Virus record (IMG/VR): IMGVR_UViG_3300025098_000012
Span: 162,699 to 226,698 of that record
Length of the DNA: 64,000 nucleotides
Strand: one strand, 5' to 3'
Origin: a virus
Shown here: piece after piece, positions 5,195 through 27,366 of the stretch
Layout of the letters: the number at the start of each line of letters is the position of its first letter
Position numbering within the stretch: position 1 is the stretch's first letter
Position numbers and translations under genes: made by a program
Notes under the pieces: model-generated
Seen by the model: only the letters and a program-made list of their open reading frames with translations
What the model was told of the DNA's origin: nothing
Database searches by the model: none

Positions 5195-6106
5195 TCACTC
5201 CACACCAAACTTAACCATCCAACGACCAATCGTACTCGCACCCACATCAAGATACTTGGCAATCCTACGCTGACTCCAACCCTTACTCCTTAAGTCCTCT
5301 AAGATGCCTTTGTCCATCTTCTTCTTGATAGCATTGTTGCGACCTTGAAAACCAAAGTCCAACTTGTAAGACATACAATCGGGTACATGAGGCTTAATGA
5401 TCTCAATGAAACGATCAGCGTTATCACCCTTAAAGTGAAACTCTCCTGCCTCCCCTTTTTTATGTGTCCAGTTAGGAGCTAAACCAAACTTCTCAAAGAT
5501 TAAGTAAGCGTTAGCTCGACTCCCCTGTTTTGCTCCAAAACAAATCTGAGGCCAATGTCCTGCATTACCATCATCGAGATACCACATAGCCAAAGCTAAC
5601 TCATCTACTTGGTCTATAACATCAGACTTAACAACTTTCCAACCCTTATCCCTATCCTCATAGAACAAGTCTCGATACTCATTAAGCATTGGGTGAGCGT
5701 GGGTGCGAAAGATATATGAGGTAAAATCTCGGCTCTTCGCTGTGGTTAACTCACCACTTGACCATTTGCCCCACTTCTCTTGCTTCCACTCAAGATACTC
5801 TTTCTGATTCGGTGCGTGTCGTTCCTCATAGTGTGAAGCGTTCGTTCTAAAGGCAATACGACCGTCACCTAGCATAGAACCAATAAGGATTGATCTTAAC
5901 TCCCCCTCAATCTTTGGTAGCTCAAGACGATCATATTTAGCCACTGTCTCAATCTCATAGCGTAGTCTCCAACTACGGACACGCTTTATGCTTGAGTCAA
6001 CACCCTCAGAAATCAACAAATCGTTAATCTGCTCCTGTGTTAAGTATTGCTTAGTATAGAGGTCTTCAAAACGCTCTTTAGATATAGGGCATGGTATCGC
6101 TCTCAT
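5195..6106 (-). CDS. LAGLIDADG-type homing endonuclease
   Basis: The 303-residue protein has two degenerate LAGLIDADG helices, LIGSMLGDG and LALAMWYLDDG, each ending in the acidic pair that binds metal. Both ends carry helix-turn-helix-like segments; the C-terminal one (WSQRRIAKYLDVGASTIGRW) resembles a resolvase-type HTH. Such enzymes cut unmodified alleles and spread their own gene. It is free-standing, not in an intron or intein. I placed the start at the ATG overlapping the TGA of the membrane-protein gene, since an upstream M would overlap that gene more deeply. Confidence 0.8.
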   Translation of the reverse strand: MRAIPCPISKERFEDLYTKQYLTQEQINDLLISEGVDSSIKRVRSWRLRYEIETVAKYDRLELPKIEGELRSILIGSMLGDGRIAFRTNASHYEERHAPNQKEYLEWKQEKWGKWSSGELTTAKSRDFTSYIFRTHAHPMLNEYRDLFYEDRDKGWKVVKSDVIDQVDELALAMWYLDDGNAGHWPQICFGAKQGSRANAYLIFEKFGLAPNWTHKKGEAGEFHFKGDNADRFIEIIKPHVPDCMSYKLDFGFQGRNNAIKKKMDKGILEDLRSKGWSQRRIAKYLDVGASTIGRWMVKFGVE

Positions 6107-6420
6107 AACCAACCACCCCCTAGATCCTCTTTTCCTGTCAGCAACCAATATACTGTCGCAATCATAAAAAGAGTCATACAGATAAGAAAGTACACAAATC
6201 CTACGATAACAAGTACCCCAATAGAGTTCAAGTTGAGATCAGAAAAGACAAAACCCCAAAAACCTTCCCAACTGAAGTAGCCAAGTAGCCCCCCTATGAC
6301 GAATCCTGTTAAACAAGTCATAAAGACAGACAAGTACAGGCTACACAAAGTAAGGAGGAACTTCCCTACCTTATGTACTAGGAAGCATACCCTGTTGAAG
6401 ATGCGTTCAAAAGCGTTCAT
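6103..6420 (-). CDS. Small membrane protein, 105 aa
   Basis: This hydrophobic protein has about three predicted membrane spans (around residues 20-48, 66-78 and 78-93). No catalytic motif is visible. Its stop overlaps the start of the endonuclease gene by four bases (ATGA), so the two are translationally coupled. Function not recognised. Confidence 0.6.
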   Translation of the reverse strand: MNAFERIFNRVCFLVHKVGKFLLTLCSLYLSVFMTCLTGFVIGGLLGYFSWEGFWGFVFSDLNLNSIGVLVIVGFVYFLICMTLFMIATVYWLLTGKEDLGGGWL

Positions 6421-6510
6421 AATGACCTCTTTAGGTTCTTGTGTGGTTGGTTGTGTTCCATTTGTACCACTATGAACCTAAAGAGGTCAAGATTTATTTC
6501 CCCTAGATAC

Positions 6511-6543
6511 AAAAAAACCCCATCTCCCGAAGAAGATGAGGTT
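6511..6543 (-). terminator. Rho-independent terminator after the capsid operon
   Basis: The ten-base arms AACCCCATCT (6516-6525) and AGATGAGGTT (6534-6543) pair (one G-T wobble) around an eight-base loop. In the minus direction the stem is followed by seven T. It lies about 60 bases beyond the capsid stop at 6606, a classic intrinsic terminator ending the head operon. Confidence 0.75.
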
Positions 6544-6605
6544 CTTTCTAAGTACCTCTTACACCTACTAAGTAGGCGAATGTACAAGCATTGTTATCTT
6601 AAAGA

Positions 6606-7484
6606 TTAACGCTGTACAGTAAGACGAGCAAGACCACGAGGGTTGTAAGCTCCGATACCCAAGTTTTCAAAGACACTGAAGCCGATTGTACGAGCTTTAG
6701 GATCGTCAGCAGAAAGGACGGTCAACTCGGTACGAACAGGGATACGACCAAACATCTCTGGCTCACAGCAGACATAAACAGTTCCAACAGGAACAAGTCG
6801 GCTAGTGATGATCTGAGCACCCCAAAGGGTAGCCTGTAGACCAGTCTTGAGAAGTGCCGCTTGGCTCTCGATGTCGAGAATGTCACGACCGAACTTACGG
6901 ATGTCAGCGTAATCACGAGCATTCATGAATACACGAGCAACACGAAGGTCATGACGCTCAATGAGGCTGTATGCGTCAGCAAGAACAGCACCATTAAGAG
7001 GAGCGATAACAGGAATGTCAGCGTTAGTCTGACCTGCAACGCTATCAAATCCGTTAGCCGCAACTGCATCAAGGATAGCGAATACACGCTCGTCCTCAGC
7101 CGCTTGGATTTGAGCACGAGCAAGATCCTGAGCACGCTCGATAAGGTCGAACCTACGCTCTTTGATCTGTGTGAGTGGGATCTCTGGGTTAGAAGCGATC
7201 TCAAACAATGGGAAGATAACCCTGCGTGGCTTGGTGATAGCAAGGATGTTCTCACCCTCTTCACCAACTACGAAAGCAGTCACATCGGGATCTTTGTCGT
7301 AGATAGGTAAAGCACCATCTGGAAGTTGCTCGACTAAGAAAGTCTTACGACCAACAGAGGTGTAATCTCTACGAAGGCGAAGTGGTTGAGTCATTGAAGC
7401 GGCGAGCTTCGCACGACCCTGTGGAGTCTTAATGTAGTCAGAAATGATCTTCTGTTTTACGGCATTATCAACTGTATTACTCAT
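6606..7484 (-). CDS. Major capsid protein (HK97-fold type)
   Basis: The 292-residue protein has the look of an HK97-type capsid subunit. It has an N-terminal arm, the segment SMTQPLRLRRDYTSVGRKTF, an E-loop-like GALPIYDKDPDVTAFVVGEE, a long spine helix (RFDLIERAQDLARAQIQAAE) and a C-terminal A-domain with LWGAQIITSRLVPVGTVYVC. It is the last gene in the order protease, scaffold, decoration, capsid, the expected head-gene order. A P1 motif before the preceding gene and a strong terminator after this one frame the pair. No long N-terminal propeptide is apparent. Confidence 0.75.
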   Translation of the reverse strand: MSNTVDNAVKQKIISDYIKTPQGRAKLAASMTQPLRLRRDYTSVGRKTFLVEQLPDGALPIYDKDPDVTAFVVGEEGENILAITKPRRVIFPLFEIASNPEIPLTQIKERRFDLIERAQDLARAQIQAAEDERVFAILDAVAANGFDSVAGQTNADIPVIAPLNGAVLADAYSLIERHDLRVARVFMNARDYADIRKFGRDILDIESQAALLKTGLQATLWGAQIITSRLVPVGTVYVCCEPEMFGRIPVRTELTVLSADDPKARTIGFSVFENLGIGAYNPRGLARLTVQR

Positions 7485-7506
7485 AATAAATCACTCTTCC
7501 TTTCTA

Positions 7507-8100
7507 TCAAATGCGTTGGTCGTATACCAACTCATCAGAAGTTGAGTCGGGAGCGATTTTAAGAATACCGATAGTAGTAGTATCAGTATGAGCGTTTGCG
7601 TTTCCTGTCTCAGTAGTCAAGAAACCATTACGAGAAGCAACAAGTGAAGCACCTGGAACATATGCTTGAGTCAAAGCTCCACCACCGTTGTCAATACGGA
7701 TTGTCTCATAAAGAAGGTTTGCGTAAGTACCTTGTGCAGAAACATAAGGTCCTCGGTTTGACGCAACACCTGGTTGGTTTTCAAAAGCATTGCCCGAAGC
7801 ATTGTTGATGAAAACACCAAGTACACGCTCAGTTGCAGGTGCAACAGCCTGTGAAGGCCCACCATGCTCATTAGCAGTACCACGAGTAAAAGCGATAGAA
7901 CCACTAAGTACACCGAGTACATTTGTTAAAAGTCCAGGAGCGGTGGTAGTATCACCGTTACCTGCAAAATCTACGGGGTTAGACTGAGTGAAAGCACTGC
8001 TGTGTAGTTGACCTACAGTGTTACGCACACCAACATGGAGGATACGCAACGCAGAGCTTGACTCTGTAAAACCACCACTAGCTTGTCCAAGTAGAGCCAT
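7507..8100 (-). CDS. Capsid decoration-like structural protein
   Basis: The 197-residue protein is rich in Gly, Ala, Ser, Thr and Asn, with repeated short beta motifs, typical of head decoration or other virion surface proteins. It lies 22 bases upstream of the capsid gene on the same strand, where head-stabilising proteins are often encoded. The ribosome site AGGAG is clear. Exact role (decoration versus fibre) cannot be told from sequence alone. Confidence 0.55.
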   Translation of the reverse strand: MALLGQASGGFTESSSALRILHVGVRNTVGQLHSSAFTQSNPVDFAGNGDTTTAPGLLTNVLGVLSGSIAFTRGTANEHGGPSQAVAPATERVLGVFINNASGNAFENQPGVASNRGPYVSAQGTYANLLYETIRIDNGGGALTQAYVPGASLVASRNGFLTTETGNANAHTDTTTIGILKIAPDSTSDELVYDQRI

Positions 8101-8122
8101 GAGATTTCTCCTATTTAGCTCG

Positions 8123-8145
8123 TACTCTCTGTTTTCAAGAGAGTA
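8123..8145 (-). promoter_or_regulatory. 5' leader hairpin before the decoration/capsid operon
   Basis: The eight-base arms TACTCTCT and AGAGAGTA pair perfectly around a seven-base loop, between the P1 motif at 8214 and the ATG at 8100. There is no T run, so it looks like a 5' UTR stabilising or regulatory stem on the capsid mRNA rather than a terminator. Confidence 0.5.
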
Positions 8146-8213
8146 GTGTTGTGTTGAAATAGGGTGGTCTTACAACCAACCCCGAAAAGGTTTTCCAATA
8201 TAATAGCGTCAGA

Positions 8214-8228
8214 TATAAATAAACTATT
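8214..8228 (-). promoter_or_regulatory. P1 promoter-like motif before capsid operon
   Basis: Gene-sense AATAGTTTATTTATA, about 110 bases upstream of the decoration/capsid genes. Its position before the most highly expressed structural genes supports a late promoter role. Confidence 0.55.
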
Positions 8229-8245
8229 ACAAGTTTATCTATATC

Positions 8246-9814
8246 TTATCCGAAGAACTTGCTTACATCGGGAGCAGACTCCCAAAGTTTAGAAAGCTCA
8301 TCAGAAGCACTTGAAGCCTCACGAGAGATGTTACCGAGAGTCTTAACAGCCGCTTTACGAGCAGAGGTGCGTGGGCGATAAGAAGCCTTCTTATCAGCCT
8401 TTTCCTCTTTAGCCTCTTCCTCAGTAGCTTCTTCTTCGGTAGCTTCTTCTTCGGTAGCTTCTTCCTCAGTAGCTTCTTCCTCAGTAGCTTCTTCGGTAGA
8501 CTCTTCCTCAGCGTCTTCATCAGCCGCTGTGAAGATTGAAGCGAGGCGAGGGTCCATAGCCATTGCATCTTCTGCGTCCATGTCAAGACCCATGACATCT
8601 TCACCCATGCTCATTGTAGTTTCGACTTCTTCAGCAGTATATCCATACTCTGGATCATTCTGCTCACGAGTGTCATCTGCTTCAAGCTCTGCAAGGAGAG
8701 TTGCCATCTCATTATCAGCAGTAGTGTCCATGTCAGACATATAAGTTGAAAGAGCTTCTGCAAGACGCTCAATCTTTGCTAAACGCTGAGTAGGCTGACC
8801 CTCTGAAGGCTCACTAGCAGGAGCAGTCTCAAGTGCTACAGTGTCGTTCTGACCTTGATAGCCTGTACCAACTTGTACTGCGTTATCAGCGAGTTTACGA
8901 ACCTTGCGAGCAAGACGAGCATTAGCGGCTTTAAGAGTAGCGATTTCTTCTGCGAGAGCTTCGGCTGATGAAGAGTGATCCTCAGCCATCATCATAGCCT
9001 CGTGATCTTCAGCCATCAACATTGCTTCGTGATCTTCAGCTTCAAGATCAGCCATGATTTGTGAAAGCTCATCTTCTGCTTCAAGTTCGTCTGCGAAAGA
9101 CTCACCAAGACCAAGAGCGATTTCATCACGAGAAAGGAAGCCATCCTCATTCATATCAAGATCGTCAAAGATCTCGTCAGAGCCACCCCATTCGTCCATA
9201 GAAATCATGCCATCGCCATCGGTGTCATAAGCGTCAAACATAGAGTGACCCATGTGATCGTCAGCTTCTAGTTCATCACTTGCATTTCCTGGTCCTGTGA
9301 ATTCAAGACCTTCATCATACTCAGTTCCAACTTGTACAGCATTGTCAGCAAGACGAGCAACACGAGCATTAACAGTACGACTAGGAAGATCCATCATGCG
9401 AAGTGCAAGATCCTCGATCTCACGCTGTGAAGCAGTACGACCAAGACGACTTTCAGCGATGCGAATGCACTTAGCCGCTTTACGCTCCATAGCTTTTTTA
9501 AGGTTCTCTTGGCGAAGGTCATCAGTAAGAGCATAATCTTCAACAAGCTCATCGCTTACAGCAGGATGCTCTGGCTCCCAACCATAAGATGCAGGAGCAG
9601 GACCAGAACGGTAAGGTCCTTTACGGACTCCTTCACCGAACTCTGAGTCGAAGCCATACTGATCTACAGAAGGCTGATCGGATGAAGCAGGGTGACCGAA
9701 GTGATCCCAACCAAGATTATCGTATCCTGGGAGGCCAGAGTTTGCTCTGCGATTTCTTCTACGAGCAAGCTCTGCCCTGCGAGACATATTCTTAGAACGA
9801 GAATACCTAGACAT
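8246..9814 (-). CDS. Acidic scaffold-like protein with paired EF-hands
   Basis: The 522-residue, strongly acidic protein sits between protease and capsid genes, the usual place of the scaffold. Two canonical 12-residue EF-hand loops are visible, at 197-208 (DTDGDGMISMDE) and 220-231 (DMNEDGFLSRDE), each with Asp at 1, 3/5, Gly at 6 and Glu at 12, so calcium binding is likely. Two copies of ADNAVQVGT occur (about 156-164 and 309-317) beside helical segments, and DHEAM-type repeats occur around 261-280. A TEEEA tandem repeat and a basic tail follow. Scaffold role is from position and composition; EF-hands there are unusual. Confidence 0.65.
   Translation of the reverse strand: MSRYSRSKNMSRRAELARRRNRRANSGLPGYDNLGWDHFGHPASSDQPSVDQYGFDSEFGEGVRKGPYRSGPAPASYGWEPEHPAVSDELVEDYALTDDLRQENLKKAMERKAAKCIRIAESRLGRTASQREIEDLALRMMDLPSRTVNARVARLADNAVQVGTEYDEGLEFTGPGNASDELEADDHMGHSMFDAYDTDGDGMISMDEWGGSDEIFDDLDMNEDGFLSRDEIALGLGESFADELEAEDELSQIMADLEAEDHEAMLMAEDHEAMMMAEDHSSSAEALAEEIATLKAANARLARKVRKLADNAVQVGTGYQGQNDTVALETAPASEPSEGQPTQRLAKIERLAEALSTYMSDMDTTADNEMATLLAELEADDTREQNDPEYGYTAEEVETTMSMGEDVMGLDMDAEDAMAMDPRLASIFTAADEDAEEESTEEATEEEATEEEATEEEATEEEATEEEAKEEKADKKASYRPRTSARKAAVKTLGNISREASSASDELSKLWESAPDVSKFFG
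8415..8500. repeat. 15-base tandem repeat coding TEEEA
   Basis: About five to six copies of a 15-base unit (TTCCTCAGTAGCTTC or TTCTTCGGTAGCTTC on the plus strand) encode repeated TEEEA residues near the C-terminus of the scaffold-like protein. The copies differ at synonymous positions. The tract could vary in length by slippage. Confidence 0.7.
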
Positions 9815-20575: not shown

Positions 20576-21241
20576 ATGAAGATTTTGATTGTAAGCACAA
20601 CCACGCATAGGGATAAATCAACTAGCAAAATGGTGCTAAGTAAACTGTCAGATAAACTAAATGAAAAGCATGATATAGACTTCATTGATGCAAATGATCT
20701 TCACATCGTTCCTAATCTTAGTTGTTATTCTGATGGGAAAATGAACTGTGCTAATCCAGACGCAGGTAAATATAGATGTTGGGCACATAAACTTAGTCAT
20801 GACAACCCCGATGATTATCGGGGGAAAGATGAGATGAACATCATTTATGACGCTTTAGATTGGTGCGACTTGGTAATATGGGGAACGAGTGTTCGTTGGG
20901 GTAGTCATTCAGCCTTGATGCAGAAGATCATAGAGCGTATGAATACCCTTGAAAACCAACAAACAGTATATGGAGAGAAGAACCCTTTAGAGGGTAAGAA
21001 ATGTGGTGTTGTGGTAACTGGACAGCATTATAAGGCACAATCGGTATCTGAACACCTCATCACACAGTTCGGGTGGATTGGTTTTGATACAGACCCCTCT
21101 TATGTTTTGACTTGGCAGAAATCCCAAGACATACACCTAGAGCAAGAAGATGATAACAACGACCCTCTTGAAGCATATCTCAAATCTAAAGAGGGCAAGG
21201 CACAAGTAGATAACTTCCTTTCATTCATGGAGATCAAATGA
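20576..21241 (+). CDS. Flavodoxin-fold NAD(P)H-dependent FMN reductase-like protein
   Basis: The 221-residue protein has the flavodoxin-like reductase layout. An N-terminal strand and FMN phosphate loop ([20 protein letters not shown]) come first. The central strand [20 protein letters not shown] matches the P.R.G..S flavin loop of this family, and a later strand is [11 protein letters not shown]. Family members reduce flavins or quinones with NAD(P)H. Its TGA overlaps the ATG of the GMP reductase gene (ATGA), so the two are coupled. Substrate is unknown. Confidence 0.7.
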
Positions 21242-22722
21242 GAATCGAAACAGACTTTAAACTCGACTTTAAAGATGTGTTGTTTAAGCCTAAGAGGTCT
21301 ACCCTCACATCACGCAAAGATGTGAAACTATCTAGGGAGATTAAACTCCCTCACAGTAAAAGAATATGGGAGGGTGTACCTATAGTAGCCGCTAATATGG
21401 ACACCGTAGCTACCTTTGAAGCAGGTAAAGTCCTCACCGACCTCCACATGATGGTCTGTCTCCATAAGCATTACACCGAAGAACGATACATGGAGATATA
21501 TGATTGGGTGTATTCCAATCAAGGATGTGGCTACGCTCCATATTGGGCTTACTCTATGGGTATCTCAGACGAAGAATTTGATAGACTTGTGCGTATTCAA
21601 GATAAGACCAATGGAATGATCCTCACGATCTGCATTGATGTGGCTAATGGGTATACAGAGCGTTTCATTGAGTTTGTCGCTAAGGTAAGGAAAAAGTATC
21701 CACTCTCCATCATCATCGCAGGGAATGTAGTCACAGCAGAAATCACTGAACAGTTGATCTTAGCAGGTGCTGACATCGTAAAGGTTGGGATTGGTTCGGG
21801 ATGCTTCGTTGCTGGTACACCTATCCTCACCAATAATGGACTCAAGGCGATTGAGGAAGTTGAGGTAGGAGATAAAGTAATGACTCACATGGGTCGTGAG
21901 CGTACTGTGTCGAACACCTTCACCCATACCGATAAGAATCTACTCGTTAATGTGAATGGTATCAAAGCGACACCAAACCATGAGTTCTATGTGGTACATA
22001 AGTCTGATGCAGATAAGGTGAATGACGAGAACATCCATGAGTACGCAAAGTGGGTTCGAGCTGATGAACTGACCTATTCACATTATCTTTTAGAAGCACC
22101 CTCATTTAGTCTCATAGAAATCAATACCCTAGAAACAGAACCTAACCCATCGGGGATCGCCTATGACCTTGAGGTCGAGGAAGATCACTCATATACGATT
22201 GGGGAGAATAGGACTGTAGTTCATAACTCAGCGTGTACGACCAGAATACAGGCAGGTGTAGGTTATCCACAGTTAAGTGCTGTTATTGAGTGTGCTGATG
22301 CCGCTCATGGTTTAGGTGGACGCATCATGTCAGATGGTGGTTGTACCTGTCCTGGTGATGTAGCTAAGGCATTTGGTGGTGGAGCTGACTATGTGATGCT
22401 TGGGGGTATGCTCGCAGGACACACCGAGAACCTTAGACTTGATGAAGATGGAAACGCACTCTTCTATGGTATGTCATCAGACACAGCCATGAACAAGTAT
22501 CATGGTGGTGTTAATGACTATCGTTCGTCAGAAGGACGCACAGTAGCCATTGAGCGTAAAGGTTCAATCAAAGATACCCTCCAAGACATACTTGGAGGCA
22601 TCCGATCAACCTGTACTTATATTGGTGCAAGCGAGCTAAGAGAACTGAGTAAATGCACGACATTCATTCGTGTTCGTCAGCAATATAACTCTGTGTTTGA
22701 GTCTAGGACGCTTAAGTCTTAG
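21238..22722 (+). CDS. guaC: GMP reductase interrupted by an in-frame mini-intein
   Basis: The flanking parts align closely with bacterial Gua[58 protein letters not shown], then [35 protein letters not shown] and YGMSSDTAM. The enzyme converts GMP to IMP and ammonia with NADPH. A 142-residue intein (precursor residues 189-330) separates GIGSG from SACTTR, two residues before the catalytic cysteine (C333). Spliced, the enzyme is 352 residues, near the 347 of E. coli GuaC. The unspliced precursor should be inactive. ATGA overlap couples it to the flavin reductase. Confidence 0.93.
21802..22227 (+). mobile_element. Mini-intein (HINT domain, no endonuclease) in guaC
   Basis: The 142-residue insert has the splicing blocks. 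Block A is [10 protein letters not shown], with Cys1. Block B is [13 protein letters not shown], with the TxxH motif. Block F is [15 protein letters not shown], and block G is TVVHN followed by Ser+1. The penultimate His and terminal Asn are both present, so it should splice. There is no LAGLIDADG or HNH domain between blocks B and F, so it is a minimal intein that cannot move by itself. Boundaries follow from Cys1 and the HN/S junction, and removal restores an uninterrupted GuaC sequence. Confidence 0.93.
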
Positions 22723-26154: not shown

Positions 26155-26172
26155 AAAGAAAGGACTTTGAAA

Positions 26173-27366
26173 ATGACTCAAGTGATCGCAGTAATAGGTG
26201 GACAATGGGGCGATGAGGGTAAAGGAAAAATCGTTGATTTTTTGTCGCACAAAGCTGACTACTGTATACGCTTTCAAGGAGGAAGCAATGCAGGACACAC
26301 CATCATTTTTGGAGGTGAAACATACAAGCTCCGACTTCTACCTTCTGGTGTACTCAGAGGAGCTAAAGGTGTACTTGGTGCAGGTATGGCAATCAACCTC
26401 GATGTCTTACAAGGCGAGTTTGATATGCTATGTGGGATGGTTGGATATGAAGAAGCAAGTAAGAGGGTTCTGATTGATCATCGTGCTCATCTTATTCTCC
26501 CCATCCATATTCAAGTGGATACCGAACGAGAAGAGAAATCTTCCAATCGCATCGGAACAACACGAAACGGAATCGGTGTCTGTTATGAGGATAAAGCAAG
26601 ACGCATTGGGTTGAGAGTAGGAGATTTGCTTGACCCATCAACATGGAATGAGAAAGTCAAACTCATAGCTGAAGCTCATGGTGGGTATTCATCTTCTCTC
26701 GTAAAAGAAGAAATCTTATTGAAGTTAGAGAGGTGGAGGGAGAGCTGGATACCTTTTATTTATGACAACCTCTCTTTAAAGCTCCATGAAGCGATGAATG
26801 GTGGTGTTGATAAGGTTATTATTGAGGGTGCTCAAGGAACTTTCCTCGACATCTCACATGGAACATACCCATTCGTAACAAGTTCAACCACGATTGCAGG
26901 TGGCATCAGTGCAGGTATTGGATGTGCATTACCTCGTGATGCAGAAATCATTGGAGTAGTGAAAGCCTATTGCACACGAGTCGGTGCTGGTCCTTTCGGG
27001 TTAGAGGACACAGGTGAGCTTGGTGAGCGTTTGAGAAGCAAAGGTGGAGAGTTTGGTGTGGTCACAGGTCGAGCTAGACGCTGTGGTTGGAACTCACTAC
27101 CCATGCTTAAACACGCTCAAGTCTTAAATGGGTTCACCTCACTAGCCATCACCAAAGTAGATGTGCTTGATGGGTTTAGTGAGGTGAGGATCGGATTGGA
27201 GGGTGGCATGAAAGTCTTTGAAGGGTGGGATAACTCGGCAGGAGTTCAAGACTACTCCTTCCTCCATGCAAATCTCAAAGAGTATATTGATTACATCAAT
27301 GAGAATGTAGTCCCTGTGTCGATCATCTCAACAGGTGCTGATAGAGAAGATACGATCTTCGTTTAA
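26173..27366 (+). CDS. purA: Adenylosuccinate synthetase
   Basis: The 397-residue protein carries the PurA signature GQWGDEGKGKIVD, with the catalytic Asp (D14), and GGSNAGHTI, with the catalytic His (H42). It also has RIGTTRNGIGVCYEDKA, EGAQGTFLDISHGTYPFVTS and the C-terminal STGADRED. It joins IMP and aspartate with GTP to make adenylosuccinate. The intact Asp separates it from PurZ, the dATP-replacing enzyme of Z-genome phages, where this position is changed. I chose the ATG eight bases after GAAAGGA, over an upstream TTG. With GMP reductase it can convert GMP toward AMP. Confidence 0.95.
   Translation: MTQVIAVIGGQWGDEGKGKIVDFLSHKADYCIRFQGGSNAGHTIIFGGETYKLRLLPSGVLRGAKGVLGAGMAINLDVLQGEFDMLCGMVGYEEASKRVLIDHRAHLILPIHIQVDTEREEKSSNRIGTTRNGIGVCYEDKARRIGLRVGDLLDPSTWNEKVKLIAEAHGGYSSSLVKEEILLKLERWRESWIPFIYDNLSLKLHEAMNGGVDKVIIEGAQGTFLDISHGTYPFVTSSTTIAGGISAGIGCALPRDAEIIGVVKAYCTRVGAGPFGLEDTGELGERLRSKGGEFGVVTGRARRCGWNSLPMLKHAQVLNGFTSLAITKVDVLDGFSEVRIGLEGGMKVFEGWDNSAGVQDYSFLHANLKEYIDYINENVVPVSIISTGADREDTIFV

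What the first reader, a model, noticed from the sequence alone, without database searches (positions are those of the whole stretch)
21802..22227. Mini-intein two residues from the catalytic cysteine of a phage GMP reductase
Seen: a 142-residue HINT insert with Cys1, TxxH, terminal HN and Ser+1 splits GIGSG from SACTTR in a GuaC otherwise matching the bacterial enzyme. Known: inteins favour conserved active-site sequences. Inference: with no endonuclease it is immobile by itself, and splicing gates activity. The upstream coupled gene is a flavin reductase and an SOD lies nearby, so redox-dependent splicing at Cys1 is conceivable.
Basis: partly seen in the sequence, partly recalled or inferred. 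Interest (0 to 1): 0.85.

Follow-up and report, generated by a model that had tools for sequence, protein, structure and literature searches.

The report
Phage enzyme intein, apparently re-fused
A phage enzyme gene (GMP reductase) carries a self-removing protein insert whose closest known relative, in a sister phage, is broken into two separate genes around a DNA-cutting gene; related viruses hold intermediates, suggesting that split inteins can lose the cutting gene and fuse back into one piece.

Summary
Window ORF 21238-22722 is a type-1 GMP reductase (GuaC) with a 142-aa, endonuclease-free intein (21802-22227) between GIGSG and SACTTR. All splicing residues are present and AlphaFold gives a HINT fold (pLDDT 95.9). 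The site is not new. [quoted passage not shown] Most of those belong to the 'fractured gene' type: N-extein+IntN, free-standing NUMOD3/Vsr-like homing endonuclease, IntC+C-extein. The nearest relative, L003 (90% identical, same operon), is fractured in that way, so the window and L003 form a natural cis/trans pair. On the intein tree, contiguous members are scattered among split ones (6 changes), and the window nests inside split relatives. Other loci show intermediates: in L084 the endonuclease is deleted and a single in-frame TAG separates the halves, and L117 keeps an internal MKF start. I therefore favour a re-fused split intein over an ancestral mini-intein. The window junction, however, is 41 unrelated bases and not a clean deletion scar, so the opposite direction (endonuclease inserted in L003) stays open. 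Redox gating is unsupported. Splicing itself is untested.

The parts
20576..21241 (+). NADPH-dependent FMN reductase-like protein (221 aa); its stop overlaps the GuaC start (ATGA)
   Evidence: Pfam PF03358 E 2e-15; same order in sister phage L003 5339-6004
21238..21801 (+). N-extein of GMP reductase (188 aa), ends ...KVGIGSG
   Evidence: NF003470 / PDB 2a7r alignments
21802..22227 (+). contiguous mini-intein, 142 aa, Cys1 ... HN, +1 Ser
21802..22073 (+). part homologous to the separate IntN half of L003 (93.4% nt identity)
22074..22114 (+). 41-nt junction where the sister phage has 1039 nt (IntN stop, endonuclease gene, IntC start); no significant similarity to that segment; no internal start codon or Shine-Dalgarno site
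22115..22227 (+). part homologous to the separate IntC half of L003 (95.6% nt identity)
22228..22722 (+). C-extein of GMP reductase (SACTTR..., catalytic Cys at +3) and stop codon
26167..27366 (+). adenylosuccinate synthetase PurA; with GuaC it would give GMP -> IMP -> adenylosuccinate (context of the host enzyme)
   Evidence: NF002223 411.6 bits, cut-off 402

Best explanation
The insert is a cis-splicing (contiguous) member of the IMPDH-1-type intein family at its standard site, the catalytic Cys loop of the IMPDH/GMP-reductase barrel. The precursor is made as one 494-aa chain. The HINT domain excises itself by the class-1 pathway (Cys1, TxxH, His-Asn, Ser+1) and leaves a 352-aa GuaC with a complete GIGSGSACTTR loop; the precursor should be inactive. 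The intein most likely descends from a split intein whose two halves flanked a free-standing Vsr-like homing endonuclease, as still seen in the sister phage L003. The endonuclease was lost and the halves fused in frame. Shown here: anatomy, homology, sister pair, intermediates in relatives, tree. Inferred: splicing activity, inactivity of the precursor, and direction of the change.
For: Anatomy and fold. Same site as IMPDH-1, whose exteins are GGG|SIC (PMC12350263). L003 is fractured: GuaC-N+IntN 6001-6867, endonuclease with NUMOD3+DUF559 6887-7864, IntC+GuaC-C 7854-8483. Intein tree: window+L003 100/99, joined by split L133 at 95/91; contiguous members need 6 changes. The endonuclease tree also pairs L003 with L133 (88/91), and endonuclease and intein distances correlate (Mantel r 0.75, p 0.0005), as expected if the split-plus-endonuclease unit is old. 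Two-state model: P(split) 0.99 at the window/L003 ancestor, 0.74-0.78 at the ancestor with L133. Fusion-only histories need 6 events, splitting-only 12 (12-15 on bootstrap trees). Intermediates: L084/L087 lost 785 nt of the endonuclease, leaving one in-frame TAG before the IntC ATG; L089 and L123 keep only the 3' end of the endonuclease gene; contiguous L117 keeps ...AEMKFKLVEI at the IntC start. The intein looks selected: 4 non-synonymous against 19 synonymous codon changes from L003.
Against: No splicing assay. The 41-nt window junction is not a simple deletion scar and has no significant match in the L003 segment (p 0.31), so conversion from another allele or an unseen intermediate is needed. 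The tree backbone is weak (15 of 23 inner branches open), and the estimated rates are high in both directions. Endonucleases can be swapped (L078 against L079). The intein is less diverged than its exteins (synonymous changes 19/127 codons against 103/351, p 0.0013), which suggests recombination that could blur the history.
Confidence: 0.66

Rival explanations
1. Reverse direction: the window keeps the ancestral contiguous mini-intein, and L003 became split when a Vsr-like homing endonuclease gene inserted into the intein coding sequence (the usual textbook direction).
For: PMC12707363 states that natural split inteins are believed to come from contiguous ones. The L003/window difference is a block of 1039 against 41 nt with sharp edges, as expected from homing with short co-conversion. 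The endonuclease family is mobile (HEN swap).
Against: It needs about twice as many events (12 against 6). L003 and L133 share split ends (LTK..LLLE* / MLSK.KLVEI) and sister endonucleases. Endonuclease-loss intermediates are seen directly in L084/L087, L089 and L123.
Confidence: 0.25
2. The intein is a conditional switch, in particular redox-gated, that delays GuaC activity.
For: It splits the catalytic loop; an FMN-reductase-like gene is coupled upstream and an SOD is near.
Against: The SOD is about 41 kb away in the sister phage. The intein's only Cys is Cys1 and there is no partner Cys just upstream. Known natural redox inteins use such a partner (own knowledge). The IMPDH-1-type relatives are among the fastest split inteins measured (PMC11766414).
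Confidence: 0.05
3. A non-splicing HINT domain (bacterial intein-like domain), or a dead insert.
For: The best sequence and fold match in the PDB is the C. thermocellum BIL domain 2lwy.
Against: It has all intein residues including Ser+1, an exact insertion in a conserved enzyme loop, homology to split inteins that must splice for the enzyme to form, and purifying selection.
Confidence: 0.03
4. Assembly artefact that joined two halves of a fractured gene.
For: The sister genome has an extra 1 kb here.
Against: The junction is 41 nt not present in L003, in frame, without stop; five other contigs show contiguous inteins at the site.
Confidence: 0.02

Closest known systems
IMPDH-1 split intein (metagenomic; Carvajal-Vallejos 2012, Dassa 2009)
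   Same: Same insertion site (GIGGG|SIC against GIGSG|SAC; exteins GGG/SIC in PMC12350263); same enzyme superfamily; relatives found here (L105, L117) carry the MKF... IntC start and ...HLLIEL / ...HMLIKLD IntN tails that I recall for IMPDH-1
   Different: Window intein is one chain in a GMP reductase, not two chains in an IMPDH; 142 aa with its own linker. The IMPDH-1 sequence itself was not available to align (recalled only)
'Fractured genes' (Dassa et al. 2009): split intein halves flanking a free-standing EDxHD/Vsr-like homing endonuclease
   Same: L003, L078, L079, L080, L083, L094, L105, L113, L114, L115, L124, L128, L133 have this arrangement at the same site
   Different: The window has no endonuclease and no split
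gp41-1 and NrdJ-1 inteins (6qaz, 8ubs)
   Same: Same HINT fold; profile match to gp41-1 E 8.7e-8; Foldseek probability 1.0
   Different: Other host proteins and sites
LAGLIDADG-bearing full inteins at the same GuaC/GuaB site (L107, L109, L157, L160, L164, L165, L167, L171)
   Same: Same insertion site and splice junctions
   Different: A different, longer intein type with an internal endonuclease
Bacterial intein-like (BIL) domains, e.g. 2lwy
   Same: HINT fold, closest PDB sequence
   Different: No +1 nucleophile or enzyme-loop insertion there (own knowledge)

Membership tests
Class 1 intein | N-terminal Cys/Ser nucleophile, TxxH in block B, His-Asn at the C-terminus, Cys/Ser/Thr at +1 | tested here: met
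   Cys1, TPNH 57-60, HN 141-142, Ser+1; TIGR01443 above cut-off
Class 1 intein | HINT fold | tested here: met
   AlphaFold pLDDT 95.9; Foldseek hits are HINT domains/inteins
Class 1 intein | In-frame insertion that leaves a complete host protein when removed | tested here: met
   intein-free phage GuaC sequences span the site
Class 1 intein | Protein splicing | not testable with these tools
   needs expression
IMPDH-1-type intein family | Insertion between GxG and SxC of the catalytic loop | tested here: met
   GIGSG|SAC against GGG|SIC (PMC12350263)
IMPDH-1-type intein family | Sequence kinship with split members at that site | tested here: met
   91% to L003, about 50-60% to other split members in GuaC genes
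IMPDH-1-type intein family | Alignment to IMPDH-1 itself | not tested
   sequence not held in any source available; recalled only
Fractured-gene arrangement | Intein split into separately encoded halves | tested here: not met
   one open frame in the window; met in L003
Fractured-gene arrangement | Free-standing Vsr-like homing endonuclease between the halves | tested here: not met
   absent in the window; NUMOD3+DUF559 gene in L003
GMP reductase (type 1, GuaC) | Equivalog match and catalytic Cys/Thr | tested here: met
   NF003470 490 bits, cut-off 397; SACTTR
Redox-regulated intein | Cys partner able to lock Cys1, conserved redox context | tested here: not met
   single intein Cys, no nearby upstream Cys, SOD not a neighbour in the sister phage

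The most novel reading that the evidence does not exclude
Split inteins at this site cycle back: phage 'fractured genes' repeatedly lose the free-standing endonuclease and then the stop/start between the halves, regenerating contiguous cis-splicing inteins. The window and L003 would be the closest known natural cis/trans pair.
Probability: 0.6. Interest if true: 0.75.

Novelty: new variant of a known kind. Interest (0 to 1): 0.62.

Why it matters
Split inteins are usually taken as a one-way product of breaking contiguous ones (PMC12707363, PMC7765530). A 91%-identical pair of inteins, one in cis and one in trans, in the same gene of sister phages, with endonuclease-deleted intermediates in relatives, lets that assumption be tested at the bench and gives matched material for the question of what makes a natural split intein associate and splice. 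It also shows GMP reductase as a frequent intein host and extends a class used in protein engineering.

Tried and rejected
Redox gating: rejected for lack of partner Cys and of a conserved SOD neighbourhood. BIL domain: rejected because of Ser+1, the insertion site and split relatives. Cellular relatives: the genome-contig scan with the IntN alignment gave no intein at this site, only unrelated Hint proteins and one archaeal intein. INPHARED phages: no record with an intein at this GuaC site was seen; the HINT-only hits are in other proteins. The 41-nt junction was searched for a remnant of the L003 endonuclease: nothing above chance. Sister phages L147-L149 lack the GuaC/FMN-reductase module beside the shared 207-aa gene, so they could not polarise the change. 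The L003 endonuclease search found no other close copy. The Dassa 2009 paper is not held, and the IMPDH-1 sequence was not found in any held paper.

Full report
OBSERVATION. The window (bases 162699-226698 of a 226,698-bp virus record) encodes at 21238-22722 a 494-aa protein. Its two outer parts match type-1 GMP reductase (NF003470, 490 bits; human GMPR2 2a7r aligned to residues 3-189 and 331-488). Residues 189-330 (21802-22227) are a HINT domain with Cys1, TPNH, HN and Ser+1. The model of the insert has pLDDT 95.9, and its structural matches are BIL, Prp8, gp41-1, DnaB, NrdJ-1 and other HINT domains. The precursor model has low confidence exactly at 331-340, the catalytic loop.

THE SITE IS A KNOWN INTEIN SITE. 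The IMPDH-1 split intein has exteins GGG and SIC (PMC12350263), which is the loop GIGGG|SIC of IMPDH and the same position as GIGSG|SAC here. A search of viral contigs with the N-half alignment, a DNA pattern for KVGIGxGCF and a pattern for VHNSxCTTR (read) found three architectures at this one site in phage GuaC and IMPDH-like genes: (a) split halves, mostly around a free-standing endonuclease; (b) contiguous mini-inteins (window, L092, L110, L111, L117, L118); (c) long inteins with an internal LAGLIDADG domain (L107, L109, L157, L160, L164, L165, L167, L171). Intein-free phage GuaC genes are common. No GTDB genome gave an intein at this site, within the limits of one pattern-based scan.

THE SISTER PAIR. 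The closest relative, L003 (contig of 375,691 bp), has the same FMN-reductase/GuaC order, but its GuaC is fractured. GuaC-N+IntN is 6001-6867 and ends ...ADELTKEHLLLEVQ*. An endonuclease with NUMOD3 repeats and a DUF559 (Vsr-like) domain is 6887-7864. IntC+GuaC-C is 7854-8483, starting MLSKYKLVEINTLE. The IntC start is preceded by AGAGGAG, inside the 3' end of the endonuclease gene. Between the same two anchors L003 has 1039 nt and the window 41 nt (22074-22114), in frame. Nucleotide identity is 85.8% (N-extein), 93.4% (IntN), 95.6% (IntC) and 86.7% (C-extein). Synonymous changes are fewer in the intein (19/127 codons) than in the exteins (103/351; p 0.0013), so the intein has probably been exchanged between these lineages more recently than the gene. 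Only 4 intein codons differ non-synonymously.

DIRECTION. On a tree of 26 short inteins the window and L003 pair at 100/99, with split L133 next at 95/91. The six contiguous rows need six changes. The endonuclease tree also pairs L003 with L133 (88/91), and endonuclease and intein distances correlate (r 0.75, p 0.0005), so the split-plus-endonuclease unit looks largely co-inherited, with at least one swap, L078. A two-state model puts split at the window/L003 ancestor with 0.99, and 0.74-0.78 one node deeper, for seven rootings. If only fusions are allowed 6 events suffice; if only splittings, 12 (12-15 over 1000 bootstrap trees). Direct intermediates exist in relatives. L084 and L087 lack 785 nt of the endonuclease present in L083; the IntN frame now runs through the endonuclease remnant to a TAG that is followed at once, in frame, by the IntC ATG, one substitution from a contiguous intein. 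L089 and L123 keep only the 3' end of the endonuclease gene, the part that carries the ribosome-binding site and start of IntC. L117 is contiguous but keeps AEMKFKLVEI, the IntC start of its split relatives. I therefore think the window intein is a re-fused split intein. Against this, the 41-nt junction resembles neither L003 end closely and has no significant match in the L003 segment, so fusion did not happen by one clean deletion of an L003-like allele; the tree backbone is weak; and an insertion of the endonuclease into a window-like intein in L003, with short co-conversion, gives the same pair. I put these at about 0.66 and 0.25.

MECHANISM. Shown: anatomy, site, homology, selection. Inferred from established class-1 intein chemistry: N-S shift at Cys1, transesterification to Ser+1, Asn142 cyclisation, S/O-N shift, giving a 352-aa GuaC. 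Because Ser+1 and the catalytic Cys+3 sit in the loop that the intein interrupts, the precursor should be inactive. The window has no endonuclease for it, so by itself this copy is not mobile; relatives supply an endonuclease from a separate gene. The window also encodes PurA, so the phage could turn GMP into IMP and adenylosuccinate; PurA is kept in the sister phage.

REDOX IDEA. The SOD is next to GuaC only in the window; in the sister phage it is about 41 kb away. The intein has one Cys, and the N-extein has none close to the junction. The measured IMPDH-1-type relatives splice fast (PMC11766414). I regard regulation as unsupported.

NOVELTY. Members of this site family are known (IMPDH-1; fractured genes). 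What I did not find described in the held literature is an intein in GMP reductase, a cis/trans pair of such close kinship, or evidence for split inteins fusing back; reviews state the opposite direction. The two key primary papers (Dassa 2009, Carvajal-Vallejos 2012) could not be read here, so priority is not certain.

Noticed in passing
G000:C1 about 126-129 kb, - strand (L001/L002), outside the window: The same virus record has a large terminase gene with a full LAGLIDADG intein in its P-loop (GRRSGK|C...HN|T).
   Followed up: partly
L170 (IMGVR 3300032311_001238): The C-half of a fractured GuaC/GuaB-like gene starts a second intein ten residues after the first (SACTTRFMTG|CFAAGTKIN), so two inteins seem to bracket the catalytic Cys.
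   Followed up: no
L078 against L079/L128: Nearly identical split intein halves enclose very different endonucleases: the endonuclease seems exchanged between otherwise matching cassettes.
   Followed up: partly
split loci, IntC start (L003, L078, L079, L083, L105, L113, L133 and others): The end of the endonuclease gene overlaps or abuts the IntC start and carries its ribosome-binding site; endonuclease-deleted alleles (L084, L089, L123) keep just this end.
   Followed up: partly
L118 4976-6967: A CBS-domain IMP dehydrogenase (583 bits, above cut-off) holds a contiguous intein 61-65% identical to those of phage GuaC although the enzymes are only about 31% identical: the intein appears to jump between GuaC and GuaB at the homologous site.
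   Followed up: partly
window 26167-27366: Phage adenylosuccinate synthetase of the PurA type (not PurZ), with GuaC possibly a GMP-to-adenylosuccinate route.
   Followed up: partly
G001 (contig of L003): Several further intein-domain matches (C1:5745-6962, 22965, 87281, 136160-136534): the sister phage appears intein-rich.
   Followed up: no
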